DNA from: Pascua guehoae
Lineage: Eukaryota > Basidiomycota > Tremellomycetes > Trichosporonales > Trichosporonaceae
NCBI GenBank assembly: GCA_001600415.1
Contig: BCJX01000001.1
Location: 619,186 to 683,185, forward strand
Reading direction: 5' to 3'
Length of the DNA stretch: 64,000 bases
How positions within the stretch are numbered: position 1 is the first letter of the stretch; each line of letters opens with the position of its first letter. Positions 18,291-26,861 of the stretch are shown here, piece by piece. The notes beneath the pieces are model-generated. The model ran no database searches. It worked only from the letters and a program-made list of their open reading frames with translations, and was not told the origin of the DNA. A program made the position numbers and the translations under genes.

Positions 18291-19868
18291 TTACCCGCCC
18301 ATGACGCTGCCATTGAGCGCATAGTTGACGCCAAAGGACAGAAGGCTGCCAACAGCGAGACCAGAGACGAGGCAGAATGACGCAAGTGTGCTAGCAAGGT
18401 CCTTTTCGTCCTCAGTGATGGCAGGGTTGAGGTGGGGCGACGAGGCGTAGATCATACAAATGCAGGAAACAGCACTGTTGTCAGCTGAGTGTCCATTAGC
18501 CTCCAGCTCACCCTCCCGTGAGTCCGAAAGCAAAGAGAAGAACGAAGTAGAAGAAGTCGGGGATAGCAGCCTTGTGTGCTGCCGCGCGGGATGGCGTATT
18601 GCACAAGAGGAAGAGCGGGACAAAGACGAGGCGCGCAAGGGAAAGAAGGACAATCTTTCCCGTGCTGAGCAACATGGCCGGCTTGAGAGCCGGGACGTAT
18701 GTCCTTCCGAGGTAGTCACCAACTGTGGTGTCAGGATTGCTGTAATCGACCACCCACCATTGAAAACAAAAAAGTGGAAGGCAATGAAGATGGCGGGCTG
18801 CAGTAGGCGCGGGGCGGGATTGGCGACGGAAGTAATGCTGGTCGTAATTGGAGGGAAGATGGACTGAGAGTCAGCTGGGCATAGGGAAGGAGGCCAAAGA
18901 TACCCACCAAAGTAACCATGAAGACGAAGGCTACAGCAAACTCGAGTTTAAAGTTCCTCTTGAAGACGCCCTTCATGACGCTCTTCCTCCCCACCGGCTC
19001 GTCCACGCGGTGTGCGACGCTTGCCAGAGCCTTGTCATACTCTGGATGTTGCGTGAGATAGTTGAGAGCGACGAGACAGGCAACAACACCTGCAGCGCCA
19101 AGGGCCCAGAGACCCTCGGCCGCGACAGGCGAGCTGACTTCCGTCTCGGGTGTGCTAATGCGCGACGAGTCGAGAACCGCGAGCACAAGCTGTGCGCCAG
19201 ACACGAGGACGGCAATACCGCCTTGTCCCGACATGACGGCGATAAGCTCATCCGAACCCCACAGGGCGGCGAGAGCAAACGCCGCCGACTGGAGGTAGGC
19301 ACAGCCAAACGAAAGGAGGAAGGCCACCACAAGGAGGAGTGGGAAGAGAAGCGACGACTCGGCCTCGCTTAGCTTGGGGAAGACGACCCCCAGCAAAGGG
19401 AAGGTCATGATCGCAGCCGTGCCGAGGAGCACGTAGAACGACCAGCGCAGACGATCAGTCGGAGCAGCCTAAAATGTCAGCTTGGATTGAGTCATCATAA
19501 GCTGACCTTGCCGACATTACGCTGTGCGAGTCCGAGGAAGAACAAGTTGGCAAAGCAGTACACTGTCCCGAGGTAGCTAGGGAGGTTTATCCGCAGCGAC
19601 CACCCTTGCGGGAACAGCGACGTAAGGTAAGGAAACGTGCAGATGAGCGCTGTATATGAGCTCAACTTCATTATAGAACACATAGTAGCTCACCGTTCCA
19701 TGGAAGGAGGATACCTGCTCCCAATGCCCAGAAACAAATCCAAGTTCCAAATCCGCGGTGGCGAACGTCGACTTGGGGCGCGTCGCCAGCCTCGTGATCA
19801 CGGATGGGCGCGTATTCCGCACGCGTGTCTGGCGCCGTCGACAGGAGAGACCTGAGATAACCCGACAT
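18291..19868 (-). CDS. Equilibrative nucleoside transporter (ENT/SLC29, Fun26-like)
   Basis: Six exons (19694-19868, 19507-19649, 18908-19468, 18758-18863, 18512-18722, 18291-18474) total 1380 bases, 459 aa. ENT proteins move nucleosides and nucleobases across membranes; the yeast member Fun26 is vacuolar. About eleven membrane helices can be counted. The family's first helix reads WICFWALGAGILLPWNALI, matching the conserved GxGxLLPWN motif, and is followed by FPYLTSLFP. Later come GCAYLQSAAFALAALWG (the G-Q helix that lines the pore in this family), a large cytosolic loop with basic residues (GRKSVMKGVFKRNFKLEFA) and the closing helices ending FGVNYALNGSVMGG. The N-terminus is a polar cytosolic leader. 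The start at 19868 gives an uninterrupted leader into helix 1. It is divergent from the Zn2Cys6/AlkB-like gene. Confidence 0.92.
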
Positions 19869-20422: not shown

Positions 20423-23400
20423 ATGGAGTACTCGAGCCTGCACGGAACGCCTAACGGCTCTGCGCCGCCTGCTAGTGCTCCAACGCCTGCTACGGAGCTG
20501 CCACAATCTAGCTCCAGTGCGGCACCGGTTGCTGCGGAACCGTAAGTACCTCGAATTCACAATACATCGTGACTGACCCGATCCCAGTTCCGCGGCCCAA
20601 CAGGACGCAGGAGATGCATCACCCCCTTCTCCGTCGGAGGCCATTGCCTCTACCTCACGCACGATCGTCTACCCACCAGAGTCCAAGCCCAACCCGGCCT
20701 ACTCTCTTGGAGGCAAGCGTCAAGATCCGATCCTTGGCGAGCTCGAGCGCCCAGAACGCCTTCCACGCGAACTGGACGAGCGTGTCGACCCGTCCAGCGT
20801 GTGGATGATCCCCATTCCCGCTACTGGTGCGTCCAAGGCCAGCTGGGCTGACATGGGCTAACATCTCAGGAGAGGCAGCCTACTTCCTGCCTGGGGGATG
20901 TACGCTGTGTCGGAGCCTTCAGACACACTGCAACCGCTCCGAGCCAACCTGTGGCAACTGCCGGGATCGGAATCAGCCTTGCACGCTTGGCAACCTCGTT
21001 AACTTTCGCACGACTGCAACTGCAGTGCGCTATGTCCCCGTACAAAAGCCTCTTGTACCAGAGCGACGGCCGAGTGCTGTTGACAAGGGCAAGAGCAAAG
21101 CTGTGGACGATGAAAGCGACGAGAGCGAGCCAGAAGCCGAGATCGAAGAGGGCGGGCGTGGGAAACGGGTCAAGAAGAAACGCCGTCTGTCGGCATCCGA
21201 CGAACTCGACCCAAACTTGCTCAATTGGGACGGCACAGGACTAAAGAAACAGCGAGCGCGAGCACGCCCATCGGTGCTCCCTCCTGTGTCTTCGGGACCC
21301 AGCCGTCCTGAGGATATCGACCCAACACCTGATGACAGGCGATATCAAGCCGCTGTGGCTGTCAACGACGAGCGTCCTGCTCTGCATGAGATGCGCGGTT
21401 TCTGTCCTGTTTGGGCAGACCGGAGGCGCGCGCTCTTTGCAGCAGCAGAATATTTGCGTAACCCGCAACGAACGGTGGGGGCGAGTGTCGACATTGGGGC
21501 CAGTGGTGTCGCCAGGGGTGTCATTCTTGAGGGTGTTCCACCGTCATCAGGCACATTTTGGGGCGATGGCGCAGACGCTGGCACCATTGTGGCATCCATG
21601 TGTGTATCAGACCGAGATGAGAAGTTGCAAAGCTGACGAGTAGAGGGAAACCACGCAAACGCAACGCTCCGGCGGTTCCCGAGACGATGCTTGCGTCGCC
21701 TTCAATTGCCGATGAGTTTACCCGCACGTGGACAGGAACTGCAGACGAGACGACCACGAACGGCGCAGTCAACGGAACGACTCCTACCCCCGTGGAAGCC
21801 GCACCGATTGAGGCACTCTTCATGGCCCAGCGGGCCCGGACGCCCGTTGCTGTTGCCGTTGGACACGACTATCCCGATGTCCCATTCCAAGTGCCGCGAC
21901 CGGTTATCGTGATGGGCTGGTTCTGGGTCGTGGACGCATGGACTGAGCCGGTATCGGCTTTCTCTGAGGGTGCCGGAGCACCCGACTCGGTCGTGTGGAA
22001 GTTTCGTTTCGAGTGGTGTACCGAGGGCCAAAAGGCACCATGGTGGACCCCCAAGAACATTTCCGACCGCATTCCAACGCCCACACTCGCAGACGGGACC
22101 ACGTCGTGGCCAGTGCGTGGGCCTGGCGTCTCAGGACCCACGACGTTGCGGGGAGCAGCCGAGCCGCGCCCGACACCGTCATCGGCCGAGGACGAGGAGG
22201 ATGCCGACGAGCCCGAAGTGGTGGCCGCTGTCCACTGCAAGACATGCAACACGTACTCTGACCGTGTGTATGAGGACTCTGCTCCGTGTCTCAACGAGGC
22301 CTGCAGCGACTACTTTGTCGACACTGAGGACCGTGCACGGCCCATCGAGTCGAACTTCCCAGCATCAGCCCGAGCGGAACCACGTATCCAGCCCGAGTCG
22401 CTGCGTCTGAGCTTAGCCCCTGAAGATCCGGCGGTGGTGTACAGCGAGGCTCGGCGTCACGACGCACAGCGCGACTTTTGGCGCGCGTGGGTGTGTAAGC
22501 GGTGTCGAATGGCCAACGAACGTCGCGACTGGGTTGGGTTCTTGTGCGAGGCGTGCTCGTCCCTCGAGGTACCCCAACGCAAGGTGTACACCGAGGACGC
22601 GCTTCGTCCAGCGTCGCGCACGGTGTGCGTCGGACCACGCCCGGACGAGGGATACCCCCAGTGGCCCTTTGACGCTCCGCGTACATCGGCACTGTTCCCC
22701 GACGACGTCAAGGTGGTCCGCCACATGCTCAACGCGGGCTTTGCTGGAGGTGAACTCCACCACGTACTCGGCCACGAGGGCAAGGACGTCCCCGTCATGG
22801 CGCAGGCAGTCCTCAAGGGTCTGCAACTACAGGGTCCAGACGAGGTCCCTTTCCGCCGCCATATGCTCTCTGCGTCCAGTTCTCGCGTTGCTGAACTCGC
22901 CGTCTCGCCATTCTACACCATTGCTTGTGGTCCAGATGCCCCGCTCATCGCCCATCTCCCTGTTGGCAACACGGTGGAGTGGACCTCGTCACCACAGGTT
23001 TGTCGCGATGCCATGGAGCTCATCAACGAGCGCGCAGGGAGGGTGTACCCCGGTCAAGCCGAGTTCAACTCGCTGCTTGTCGCCGCTTTGCCACCAAGCG
23101 GAGTGCATCCGGTAAGTGTCGCGGATCGGCGTGGTGAGCTAGTGCTCATCACGGTGCAACATTGAGGGAAATATTTGCTAACATACAGACAATCCCAGTG
23201 CCTCGGGATAGCATCGCAGCATTCCTGATTCTCGGCTCGGACGCGACAATCCGCCTGAAGCGTGTGCGCGGCAAGATTGGCGAGATCACAGCCCAGCACG
23301 GGGACGTCATCATTCTCAAGACTGGCGCAGACGGTGCAGATGTCGAAGTCAAGCCCGACGGCTTTGGGTTTGTGTGCCTTGGCCGCCGAGTCGACACGGA

Positions 23401-24085
23401 CGTGGTCGTCCGACCCGCCGAGCAGTGGTACATTGGCCGGTGGCCTGTGGACCCGACGCTCGCGCTCCGCCCGCACCCCGCGCTCCGTCCGCAACCCATC
23501 ATCGCCCGCGACGACGACAGCCCGATCGACACGACCCGTTTACTCACCCCACAGCCGTTTCGGGGCCAGGTAATCACGCGCGATGATGAGGCGTTCAGCG
23601 TGCACGACCCACCGCCCTCGGCGCCTCTCCCGGGAACCGAGAAGAAGCGCACAAGGCGTGCCAGTGGTCGTGCGAGCGCAGAGCGCGCGGCGTCGGCGGT
23701 TGCTGCAGCCGCTGCAGATGAGACGGACAGCGAGGCCGAGGGCTCGACTCCACGCGGCAAGCGCGGCCGTGGGCGAGGGACAGGCCGCGGACGTGCCCGT
23801 GGAGTAGGACGAGGGCGTGGTCGTGGACGCGGTGGGGCGGCTGCTGCCACCGCTACCGCAGCAAGTCCCCCTTCAACCACCAGCCCGACCACCACGAGAG
23901 GAAGGGGGAGGGGTCGCGGACGCGGGAGGGGTAGGGGTAGGGGCAGGGGAGGTAGGGCGGTCAAGGACGAGTTGACGCCTGCCTATATTGAGGATGACGA
24001 CGACGATGGGCCCGAGGACGCTGCCACGGTCGTCAAGGCAGAGGTCGTCGATGCCGCCCCGGAAGTTGATGTCGATATGGAGTAG
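20423..24085 (+). CDS. Zn2Cys6 + zinc-ribbon + degenerate AlkB-like fold + AT-hook protein
   Basis: Five exons (20423-20541, 20588-20826, 20870-21599, 21644-23111, 23189-24085) total 3453 bases, 1150 aa. A fungal Zn2Cys6 cluster lies at residues 130-157 (C-x2-C-x6-C-x6-C-x2-C-x6-C). A basic linker with KKKRR follows, then a central region with two Cys-pair motifs (CKTC ... CLNEAC; VCKRC ... CEAC) like those next to fungal AlkB-type 2OG-oxygenases. The C-terminal fold resembles AlkB: FNSLL (837), AFLILGSDATIRLK (863-876), HGDVIIL (889-895), GRR (917-919). The expected HxD iron ligands read HPT, and the distal histidine is not seen, so it looks catalytically dead. The tail has many GRGRGRG runs (AT-hook/RG type) and an acidic end. 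I infer a nuclear DNA- or chromatin-binding protein. The AlkB assignment is from pattern, not search. Confidence 0.75.
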
Positions 24086-24583: not shown

Positions 24584-25178
24584 CTACCCACGCGCTCGAG
24601 ACTGGGCGTCGACCCACTCGTCGCGCGTGATTTCGTACTCGACCTCGCCCTCCTCTTTGCCCGGGAGATCGCGATCGATGTCGACATTATCATAAAACGT
24701 CCGCACATGCCGCATGCCAAGCTTGGCCATGAGCGCCCTCGACCCCTCGTTGACCGTCATGGTATTCGCGAGCACCCTCTCAAGTTGGACACTCTCAAAC
24801 GCGTGCCGCAAGAGTGTGCGCGCCGCCTCCCCCGCGTACCCTTTACGCCAGTGTGCGCGTGCGACGCGATCCCAGCTCGGCCGCGCGGGGAATGGGGGCC
24901 TTGTCTCGTCCGCGCGCGGGGAAGAGCATCATGAGGCCGACACACTCGTCGCTGTCGCGCGTGAAGGCCATCCAGAACCCGAGGCCCGGGATGGGCTGCG
25001 CCTCTGCTAGTCGGCTAGCGTGCGATTCGCGCACTTCGGCGCGCGTGCGCGCCCGGCCCCAGATGTACCGCAGCACCTCGGGGTCGGAGTCGAGTTCGAC
25101 TTCGAGGTCCAGGTGCGCGTCGGTGAGGGGTTCGAGGCGCAGGCGCGGGGTTGTGAGGACTGGCTGGCTCATGGTCAT
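24584..25178 (-). pseudogene. GNAT N-acetyltransferase, apparent frameshift
   Basis: The N-terminal part (start 25178, MTMSQPVLTTPRLRLEPLT) has the RimJ/RimL-type GNAT opening and continues through DPEVLRYIWG and GFWMAFTRDSDECVGLMMLF. The C-terminal half, in another frame (about 24885 down to 24584), carries the acetyl-CoA-binding loop region ARAHWRKGYAGEAARTLL, then HAFESVQLERVLANTMTVNE and a final EYEITRDEW. The two halves meet near 24885-24895 at AAELG, where the family usually has ELGY and where two bases appear missing. No GT-AG intron fits the gap. It is either a recent pseudogene or a sequencing/assembly indel. An in-frame ATG also exists upstream at 25280. Confidence 0.75.
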
Positions 25179-26861
25179 GTCTTGTGCCGGGCGTGTGAGG
25201 GAACAAAACACGGTGTATGCGAGTGACGCGCCAAACAGAGTCGAGTTTCGTCGAGTTTCGAGAAGGGAGGACAGGTGCAACTAACACGTCTGCATGTTGT
25301 TGAAAGCGAACGCTCTCACGCTCGAAATGCGCCAAGCGGCGACCCGAGCGAGCGAAGTTAGCGAGCGCGACGTGCAAGTCGGCGAGTAGGGGTCAAGCGG
25401 TGGTGGGCGTGTGTTCGAGTGTGGTACATCCGTAACAAACCGCACCCTCCAACTGTTCCACTCAGCAGCTGCAAAGTATTGGTTGTGAGCATGTCACGTC
25501 TCGAGTCAGTGGTACCTCTGCCACGATGTCGATCGACTCGATCAGCCAAGGGTGTCCGAACACCGAGCGTTCCCAGCACGGGCCAGGAAGCGCAGCATAC
25601 GTCACTGCGGAATGCCAGTGGCGACAAGCGCTTGCATCAACAAGCTTCGTTCTCAACACGCACGTGCGGAGTGCTTCGGCCGCTCGGTAGCTCGGTTGTA
25701 CCGGCTGTGCACTGGCGCGGAACATGTAGAGTTGATCCGAGGTTGCGTGGAGCTGGTGCCTATCAAAATAGATCCAGTGAGGTCACTCGTGGCTGAACAG
25801 GACGACGCGACTCTGCGACACCGCTCCACTTTGCCATGTGGAGCGCGGTCACCACGCAGGGTCTGTCGCGTCTGCGCTGTAAAAAAAAAACCGTAGGAGA
25901 ATTATGCATCGAGCATGCCGCACGGGTCTTGGTGGAATTGGTGGGAGTCACAGGAACGGCAGGTTTGGTGGAGCTGATCGGCTGTCCTTCCCCCTTGCGC
26001 AGTTCCGGCCTACGGGCCTCACGGGCCTTCTGGTCTTCTGGTGCACCGCAGTCGGTGACGCATGGACCCCGTTGATAATGGCCAACAAGCCACGTACCGG
26101 GCACAGATCGACAGCGCCGAAACATCGCATCCAACACATTGCATCGCATCACATACATTGTACAGATCGCCAGCCGTACGGCATGACAGTAGTCCTTGGG
26201 TTGTCACTCATGCGTCATGCGTGCGCACATGCAGATGTTGAAGAGTTCTGTCGGGCAAAGGGTGACGCGAGCACCCGCGTCGGCGAGTGGGAGGGCATGT
26301 GTTGGCTGTCCTGCAGACGTGGCCGGGAGACACTGGCCTGAAGCTCCACAAGAGCGACGCGTCCAGGCAGAGAGAGTGTAATGACAGAGATCAGGAGGGT
26401 ACGACGCCAACGGTGTAGCAATGACATCGACGGTACACGCGTCTGCACGTCTGGTGGCACCGCCACGCGTTGGGCTTTGGGCACTGCCTGACGAGTTCTG
26501 CAGCGCAGGTGGAAGCATTGTTGGCCAACGCCCTTGAGACATCGAGCGCTCGTCGCATTGTTGAGAGGCAGCAGCGTTGTCGCCAGCAGAACGTGCGCTC
26601 GTGCCGGACACGTCGATCGTACCAGACTGTTAGGTCCAGACACCTCTTCCACACTGCCGACACTAGCGGAAGACGTTTCGCGGTAGATATTACTCGAGAC
26701 CCCGGAAGTGTATCAGTGGGTTCAGTGTAGGCAGCAGTGGCACGTCTCTCGCTCAAATGTCTGCATCGTCTTCGTCTTCTGTCTTCTTCACATTACGTCT
26801 TGGTCATCGGTCTGGAAAGAGTCGATTACGCGACGACGGGCGCCTTGCCGTCGCCGCCATG
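25179..26861. other. Intergenic stretch without recognised genes
   Basis: About 1.7 kb with several short overlapping open frames on both strands but no recognisable domain, splice-consistent model or RNA gene. Base composition is similar to the flanks. It may include promoter sequence for the GNAT relic and the 3' region of the PMP3 gene. Confidence 0.45.

What the first reader, a model, noticed from the sequence alone, without database searches (positions are those of the whole stretch)
20423..24085. Zn2Cys6 cluster fused to a degenerate AlkB-like oxygenase fold and AT-hook tail
The sequence shows an intact six-cysteine binuclear cluster (residues 130-157), paired CxxC motifs, and a C-terminal block whose order (FNSLL, AFLILGSDATIRLK, HGDVIIL, GRR) parallels fungal AlkB-type 2-oxoglutarate oxygenases. 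It ends in many GRGRGRG runs. At the place where such enzymes carry the HxD iron-binding motif, the spliced protein reads HPT, and the distal His is not visible. If right, this is a DNA-binding protein that has kept an oxygenase fold while losing catalysis, perhaps a reader of modified bases or a structural chromatin factor. The combination is not one I know as described.
Basis: partly seen in the sequence, partly recalled or inferred. Interest (0 to 1): 0.8.

Follow-up and report, generated by a model that had tools for sequence, protein, structure and literature searches.

The report
Dead AlkB-like fungal DNA-reader protein
A fungal gene encodes a protein that kept the shape of a DNA-demethylating enzyme but lost its catalytic residues, while a sister gene in the same genome kept them; the pair looks like a working enzyme and a non-catalytic partner or reader.

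Summary

New here: (1) the same genome holds a paralogue with the same central and C-terminal domains and an intact AlkB site, with relatives in Basidiomycota and Ascomycota; 6 of 47 relatives carry an N-terminal Zn2Cys6 pattern. (2) In the intact relatives the central domain is SRA-like (SAD/YDG), the fold that reads 5-methylcytosine; for the window protein this follows by descent. So this is the non-catalytic branch of a Zn2Cys6-SRA-zinc-AlkB family, still under constraint. The AT-hook is not supported by motif.

Most likely role: a chromatin-bound reader or adaptor that handles DNA without oxidising it, beside the active paralogue. Identity is well supported; function is inferred.

The parts
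20423..24085 (+). Whole gene, five exons, 1150 aa
   Evidence: orthologues
20899..20982 (+). Zn2Cys6 cluster, residues 130-157
   Evidence: Pfam Zn_clus E 2.2e-4; coordinates; six Cys invariant in 9 aligned sequences
21403..22049 (+). SRA-like central domain, residues 298-498 (spans the intron 21600-21643; carries a variable insert at about residues 366-418)
   Evidence: Aligns with the central domain of intact relatives, prob 99.6, E 4e-24, whose profile matches SRA chains; this branch's own profile finds no PDB chain; coordinates
22236..22304 (+). First Cys4 motif, residues 561-583
   Evidence: four Cys invariant; coordinates
22494..22556 (+). Second Cys4 motif, residues 647-667
   Evidence: four Cys invariant; coordinates
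22743..23398 (+). Catalytically dead AlkB-type domain, residues about 730-922 (spans the intron 23112-23188)
   Evidence: coordinates
23106..23191 (+). HPT (851-853) at the HxD site, split by the last intron
23750..23959 (+). GR-rich basic tail, residues 1040-1109
   Evidence: no AT-hook core

Best explanation
The gene encodes the non-catalytic branch of a fungal multidomain family whose plan is [Zn2Cys6]-SRA-Cys4-Cys4-AlkB. Shown by sequence and model: common descent with an intact paralogue in the same genome, AlkB fold, family-wide loss of Fe(II) ligands and of one 2-oxoglutarate arginine, continued constraint on the dead domain. Inferred: it is a nuclear protein that sits on DNA through the Zn2Cys6 cluster, the SRA-type domain and the basic tail, and uses the AlkB shell as a binding or partner surface, so that it reads or shields (possibly methylated) DNA, or tethers or antagonises the active paralogue at the same sites. 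My weights: dead paralogue of an AlkB enzyme about 0.95; SRA assignment about 0.85; reader/adaptor role about 0.5.
For: AlkB fold from sequences of this branch only and again from a mixed alignment. Profile homology to intact relatives across the Cys4/AlkB part (E 6.4e-25) and the central domain (E 4e-24). Catalytic residues: Asp 0 of 16, first Arg 0 of 16, distal His 0 of the 18 rows with a residue there, His of HxD 4 of 16; second Arg and HGD 16 of 16; 4 of 20 rows lack the core. Intact: His and Asp 47 of 47, first Arg 45 of 45, distal His 45 of 46. Constraint: in 21 printed comparisons between taxa, the dead branch is 40-60% and the intact branch 50-76% identical. SRA: SUVH5, SUVH6 and SUVH4 are the three significant PDB matches of the intact profile. 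Same-genome paralogue. DNA-methylation context in the genome: a separate SRA gene and a C5 methyltransferase.
Against: No binding, localisation or expression data. This branch's central domain alone finds no PDB chain up to E 10, and hhalign against the own-genome SRA sequence is weak for the intact profile (prob 6.7, E 0.0054) and nil for this branch (prob 0.1). Pfam reports no SRA in 9 whole intact relatives at E 0.1, in the paralogue at E 1, or in whole P0055 and P0061 at E 10. Pfam reports no Zn_clus in 4 of the 5 other branch members scanned at E 1; there the cluster rests on the cysteine pattern. The lysines with which Gal4 touches DNA (recalled) are Leu-Gln here. The dead branch is less conserved than the intact one in 19 of the 21 comparisons, equal after rounding in 2.
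Confidence: 0.6

Rival explanations
1. Regulatory pseudo-enzyme: the dead protein acts mainly by pairing with the intact paralogue (allosteric partner, decoy or stabiliser), perhaps sensing 2-oxoglutarate through what is left of the pocket, and DNA reading is secondary.
For: Both branches were found in 13 taxa listed (one from two strains); the second Arg, HGD and LG motifs are kept 16 of 16.
Against: First 2-oxoglutarate Arg lost in 16 of 16; no interaction evidence.
Confidence: 0.22
2. Ordinary Zn2Cys6 transcription factor in which the SRA and AlkB parts are only structural ballast.
For: Six-cysteine cluster invariant in the 9 sequences; Pfam Zn_clus in the window protein and P0003.
Against: The cluster region (27-47% identity to the window) is less conserved than the central domain (49-69%) and, in the seven complete orthologues, mostly below the AlkB core (38-52%); the lysines with which Gal4 touches DNA (recalled) are Leu-Gln here.
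Confidence: 0.12
3. Still an enzyme, with other metal ligands.
For: His is present at the HxD site in 4 of 16, and HGD is conserved 16 of 16.
Against: The HxD Asp becomes Lys or Arg in 10 of 16; distal His 0 of 18; intact enzymes have the same HGD beside HxD, so it is no replacement site.
Confidence: 0.03
4. Decaying gene or wrong gene model.
For: No RNA evidence here; the junction 21599/21644 is uncertain.
Against: Open frame over 1150 codons, colinear orthologues, continued constraint, no HxD in 87 alternative splices.
Confidence: 0.03

Closest known systems
ALKBH2/ALKBH3/FTO/AlkB oxygenases
   Different: HxD...H and first Arg lost in the branch; fused to Zn2Cys6, SRA-like and Cys4 modules
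SRA (SAD/YDG) domains of UHRF1 and SUVH4/5/6
   Same: Central domain of the intact relatives matches SUVH5 E 4.4e-7, SUVH6 8.3e-5, SUVH4 1.8e-4
   Different: No SET or RING domain in the Pfam scans of the window protein and paralogue; the window branch has an insert and no direct SRA match
Gal4-type Zn2Cys6 regulators
   Same: Cysteine spacing and Pfam Zn_clus
   Different: Lysines at the Gal4 DNA-contact places (recalled) are Leu-Gln; no other regulator domain found by Pfam
Dmt1 (Mucor, AlkB family) and CcTet (Coprinopsis, TET family)
   Same: Fungal oxygenases acting on modified DNA bases
   Different: Reported as active demethylases; the passages I read in PMC13297926 mention no SRA or Zn2Cys6 fusion for them

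Membership tests
AlkB family (fold) | Double-stranded beta-helix with AlkB topology | tested here: met
   on P0018 (54% identical to the window protein in this region), branch-only alignment
AlkB family (enzyme) | HxD...H Fe(II) ligands | tested here: not met
   Asp 0 of 16, distal His 0 of 18 rows with a residue; window has HPT and Val
AlkB family (enzyme) | Two arginines RxxxxxR near the C-terminus (recalled as 2-oxoglutarate site) | tested here: not met
   First Arg 0 of 16 (Gly 14, Ala 2), second Arg 16 of 16
AlkB family (enzyme) | Fe(II)/2-oxoglutarate turnover | not testable with these tools
   needs protein
SAD/SRA domain | Significant match to SRA profiles or structures, directly | tested here: not met
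   Window branch profile: no PDB chain up to E 10; window protein: no SRA in Pfam up to E 1
SAD/SRA domain | Homology to proteins whose domain matches SRA | tested here: met
   Branch to intact E 4e-24; intact profile to SUVH5 E 4.4e-7; Pfam SAD_SRA in 5 of 15 intact domains, best 6.2e-8, one of the six scanned singly above Pfam's cut-off
SAD/SRA domain | Binding of methylated cytosine | not testable with these tools
   pocket residues not modelled here
Zn2Cys6 binuclear cluster | C-x2-C-x6-C-x5-12-C-x2-C-x6-8-C and Pfam Zn_clus above cut-off | tested here: met
   window 21.7 bits, cut-off 21; P0003 22.4 bits; P0002, P0006, P0013, P0016 by cysteine pattern only
Zn2Cys6 binuclear cluster | Sequence-specific DNA binding | not testable with these tools
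   needs assay
AT-hook | GRP-type core (RGRP/PRGR/GRPR/GRPK) | tested here: not met
   none in the window protein; 2 of 19 homologues have one
TET/JBP oxygenases | Closest fold match among TET/JBP | tested here: inconclusive
   the 50 rows shown in each list are AlkB family, FTO or Ofd2; absence from capped lists excludes nothing

The most novel reading that the evidence does not exclude
Fungi have a dedicated reader-eraser family, Zn2Cys6-SRA-zinc-AlkB, in which an SRA domain that reads methylated cytosine is fused to an AlkB oxygenase. A duplication split it: the Tremellomycete catalytic copy kept the oxygenase and mostly lost the Zn2Cys6 cluster, while this copy kept the cluster and lost catalysis, giving a paired eraser and non-erasing reader that set where methylated DNA is oxidised and where it is protected.
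Probability: 0.3. Interest if true: 0.88.

Novelty: new variant of a known kind. Interest (0 to 1): 0.7.

Why it matters
A dead oxygenase kept beside its live sister in one genome allows a direct test of what an AlkB shell can do without chemistry. The SRA-AlkB plan joins a 5-methylcytosine reader fold to a demethylase fold in fungi, including Cryptococcus neoformans and its relatives; C. neoformans is reported to keep only DNMT5, helped by a stripped-down UHRF1 homologue (PMC13297926, passages read). My one search for an AlkB enzyme in that species listed a single paper, by title on another yeast's iron regulation.

Tried and rejected
AT-hook tail: not supported by motif. HGD as a replacement metal site: rejected, since intact enzymes have it beside HxD. 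Alternative splice restoring HxD: 87 in-frame splices, none; an earlier script counted the downstream HGD and ended in an error, so only its intron-retention line is used. Duplication date: the two branches separate 100/100, but joining the dead branch to the Tremellomycete intact proteins is not rejected (p-AU 0.23), nor joining it to six Pezizomycete/Orbiliomycete-type ones (0.133); branches are long, so the date is open. Tree rows: 48 of 68 (16 of 20 dead, 32 of 48 intact; truncated rows and near relatives left out).

Is the ascomycete Zn2Cys6 the same cluster? Profile alignment of the N-terminal regions (15 and 5 sequences): prob 97.0, E 1.1e-10, including some flank. Control with 22 ordinary clusters from 20 own-genome loci (20 of the 60 matches): by HMM score 3 of 5 ascomycete-type regions beat all 22 and the other two fall just below the best ordinary one; by hhalign 4 of 5 beat all 22 and P0062 falls below three. 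Pfam gives no Zn_clus for P0050, P0054, P0056, P0062 at E 0.1 nor for P0055 at E 10; only P0022 has one. So suggestive, not decisive. P0050 has no named source.

SRA, results on both sides: the cut-out domain of P0046 scores E 6.2e-8 but the whole protein shows none at E 0.1; P0044 whole scores 2.8e-5; cut-outs and whole proteins of P0055 and P0061 show none; own-genome SRA against the profiles is weak or nil; window branch against PDB nil. In one search only 9 of 16 tried branch members were cut out by my pattern.

Literature: (open-licence PMC full text, listings) showed no title or abstract start describing this gene, a Zn2Cys6-AlkB fusion or an SRA-AlkB fusion. Passages read: PMC13297926, PMC5880922. 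Surveys by Iyer, Aravind and colleagues may mention SRA-AlkB fusions; that is recollection, and three such papers are not held.

Full report
GENE. The gene runs from ATG 20423 to stop 24085 on the + strand, in five exons, 1150 aa. The genome is 33.6 Mb in 28 contigs. In the tree the window protein groups with P0003 (Cutaneotrichosporon) and the unnamed P0018 at 99/99, which fits a Trichosporonales source. The only Pfam match above its cut-off is the Zn2Cys6 cluster.

FAMILY. A search with residues 440-960 found 8 proteins, P0001-P0008. A profile search found 17: 6 of those 8 again (not P0001 and P0006) and 11 new ones, P0009-P0019. Of the 19, 15 bear names: Kwoniella (7), Cryptococcus (3, among them C. 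neoformans and C. bacillisporus), Cutaneotrichosporon, Cryptotrichosporon, Naematelia, Tremella and a Tremellales isolate, genera that I recall as Tremellomycetes; P0001, P0015, P0017 and P0018 have no named source. Both searches scored only the roughly 8000 candidates sharing most words, so wider occurrence is not excluded. The six cluster cysteines and the eight Cys4 cysteines are invariant in the first 9 aligned. The cluster pattern is present in 16 of the 19; the other three are fragments or partial models that begin downstream of it. Pfam itself recognises Zn_clus in the window protein and P0003 but not in P0002, P0006, P0013 or P0016 at E 1.

INTACT PARALOGUE. A search of the own genome with the window's middle and C-terminal part found, besides the gene itself, one weak place (34% identity, E 3.5e-5). 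Spliced from L008 (11 exons, 10 introns GT..AG) it reads as a 1356-aa protein with the same central domain, both Cys4 motifs and an intact AlkB end: FNEILSVMYREGQKMSWHDDGE, HGDVVIM, DHRVIPEGMRVAATAR; Pfam 2OG-FeII_Oxy_2 E 6.9e-17 and no Zn_clus up to E 1. BLASTP of the two spliced proteins gives E 6e-10 and 3e-9 for two stretches. A search with its last 272 residues found 47 relatives, P0020-P0066: Tremellomycetes, Sporobolomyces and Rhodotorula, Dacryopinax, the ascomycetes Orbilia, Arthrobotrys, Rhizina, Geopyxis, Xylographa and Pseudogymnoascus, and three unnamed.

LOSS OF CATALYSIS. Aligning the branches by profile gives prob 99.7, E 6.4e-25, with HPT on HDD (14 and 24 sequences). Over 20 dead-branch and 48 intact rows: 4 dead-branch rows (P0001, P0015, P0017, P0019) lack the core. 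Of the other 16: His of HxD 4, Asp 0 (Lys 8, Thr 3, Arg 2, Pro 2, His 1), first Arg 0 (Gly 14, Ala 2), second Arg 16, HGD 16. Distal His: 0 of the 18 rows with a residue there, two of which (P0001, P0015) are alignment ends of truncated rows. Intact: His 47 of 47, Asp 47 of 47, first Arg 45 of 45, second Arg 44 of 44, distal His 45 of 46; the exception P0057 was cut short by my trimming, its full sequence reads VHKVEPTGFR. HPT is not a conserved motif.

CONSTRAINT. In the 21 comparisons between taxa printed (13 taxa hold both copies, one counted from two strains; pairs with short overlap were not printed), identity in this region is 40-60% for the dead branch and 50-76% for the intact one; the dead branch is lower in 19 and equal after rounding in 2. 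Against the window protein the AlkB core is 38-52% identical in seven orthologues (truncated P0001: 9%), the SRA-like domain 49-69% in eight, the cluster 27-47%, the tail 0-25%, the first 60 residues 15-27%. The dead domain is therefore maintained, if somewhat less strictly than the live one.

SRA-LIKE DOMAIN. Window residues 298-498 align with the same stretch of the intact relatives at prob 99.6, E 4e-24 (9 and 34 sequences). A profile of 15 intact ones finds three SRA chains in PDB: SUVH5 E 4.4e-7, SUVH6 8.3e-5, SUVH4 1.8e-4; the other two of the 5 hits have E 0.4 and 0.93. Pfam SAD_SRA matches 5 of the 15, best 6.2e-8; of six scanned singly four match and one exceeds Pfam's cut-off. Against: no SRA in nine whole intact relatives at E 0.1, in the paralogue at E 1, or in P0055 and P0061; own-genome SRA versus the intact profile only prob 6.7, E 0.0054, and versus this branch prob 0.1; this branch's profile finds no PDB chain. 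The reading for the window protein is therefore by descent. In one search's alignment the nearly invariant Asp of the intact set (first-sequence position 44) stands near the Asp of GYNDVLD in SUVH5; the tyrosines of the methylcytosine pocket (recalled) are not evidently kept.

ZN2CYS6 AND HISTORY. Six of the 47 intact relatives carry a Zn2Cys6 pattern: P0022, P0050, P0054, P0055, P0056, P0062; among the 26 named Tremellomycete ones only P0022. Five have it after a flank like IWMVP, compared with AAYFLPGG or AVYFLPPT in this branch, and the regions align (control suggestive only; Pfam does not recognise those five). A simple history is a Zn2Cys6-SRA-AlkB ancestor, duplication, loss of catalysis in one copy and of the cluster in most of the other. 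The date is not settled.

CONTEXT. The genome has a separate SRA gene (G000:C2:1333410-1334095) and a C5-cytosine methyltransferase match (G000:C1:1682549-1683783), so a cytosine-methylation system is plausible, though not shown. PF13532 also matches elsewhere on C2, C12 and C13. Neighbours of the window gene on the minus strand are a nucleoside-transporter-like gene (below Pfam's cut-off) and a GNAT acetyltransferase; nothing ties them to it.

MECHANISM. Shown: descent, fold, loss of ligands, constraint, co-retention. Inferred: DNA reading or adaptor role. AlkB-family enzymes grip and flip bases in nucleic acid (recalled; DNA-bound ABH2 structures are among the matches), and an SRA domain flips methylated cytosine in UHRF1 (PMC13297926, figure-legend passage). 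Two base-handling folds in one protein without chemistry fit a reader, a blocker or a partner of the live paralogue best.

Noticed in passing
L008:803-5479 (G000:C2 about 2850302-2854978): Intact paralogue with SRA-like central domain, two Cys4 motifs and complete AlkB active site, 11 exons; the related proteins form a fungal SRA-AlkB group.
   Followed up: yes
P0022, residues 199-225: Cutaneotrichosporon oleaginosum intact protein has a more canonical Zn2Cys6 cluster (Pfam E 2.3e-6) that its close relatives P0020 and P0021 lack by pattern; retention, gain or gene-model error is open.
   Followed up: partly
G000:C2:1333410-1334095 (L029, L030): Separate canonical SRA gene, perhaps the UHRF1-like helper known from Cryptococcus (inference).
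   Followed up: partly
G000:C1:1682549-1683783 (L031-L033): C5-cytosine DNA methyltransferase match (PF00145 E 2.7e-15).
   Followed up: partly
window 18731-19468 (-) and 24584-25280 (-): Neighbouring genes: nucleoside-transporter-like (PF01733 E 8.3e-5, below cut-off) and GNAT acetyltransferase (PF13302 E 1.5e-13).
   Followed up: partly
C-termini of P0002, P0004, P0005, P0007-P0014: A short basic end motif RKS recurs at the C-terminus of these homologues, while the window protein and P0003 have long GR repeats and acidic ends instead.
   Followed up: no
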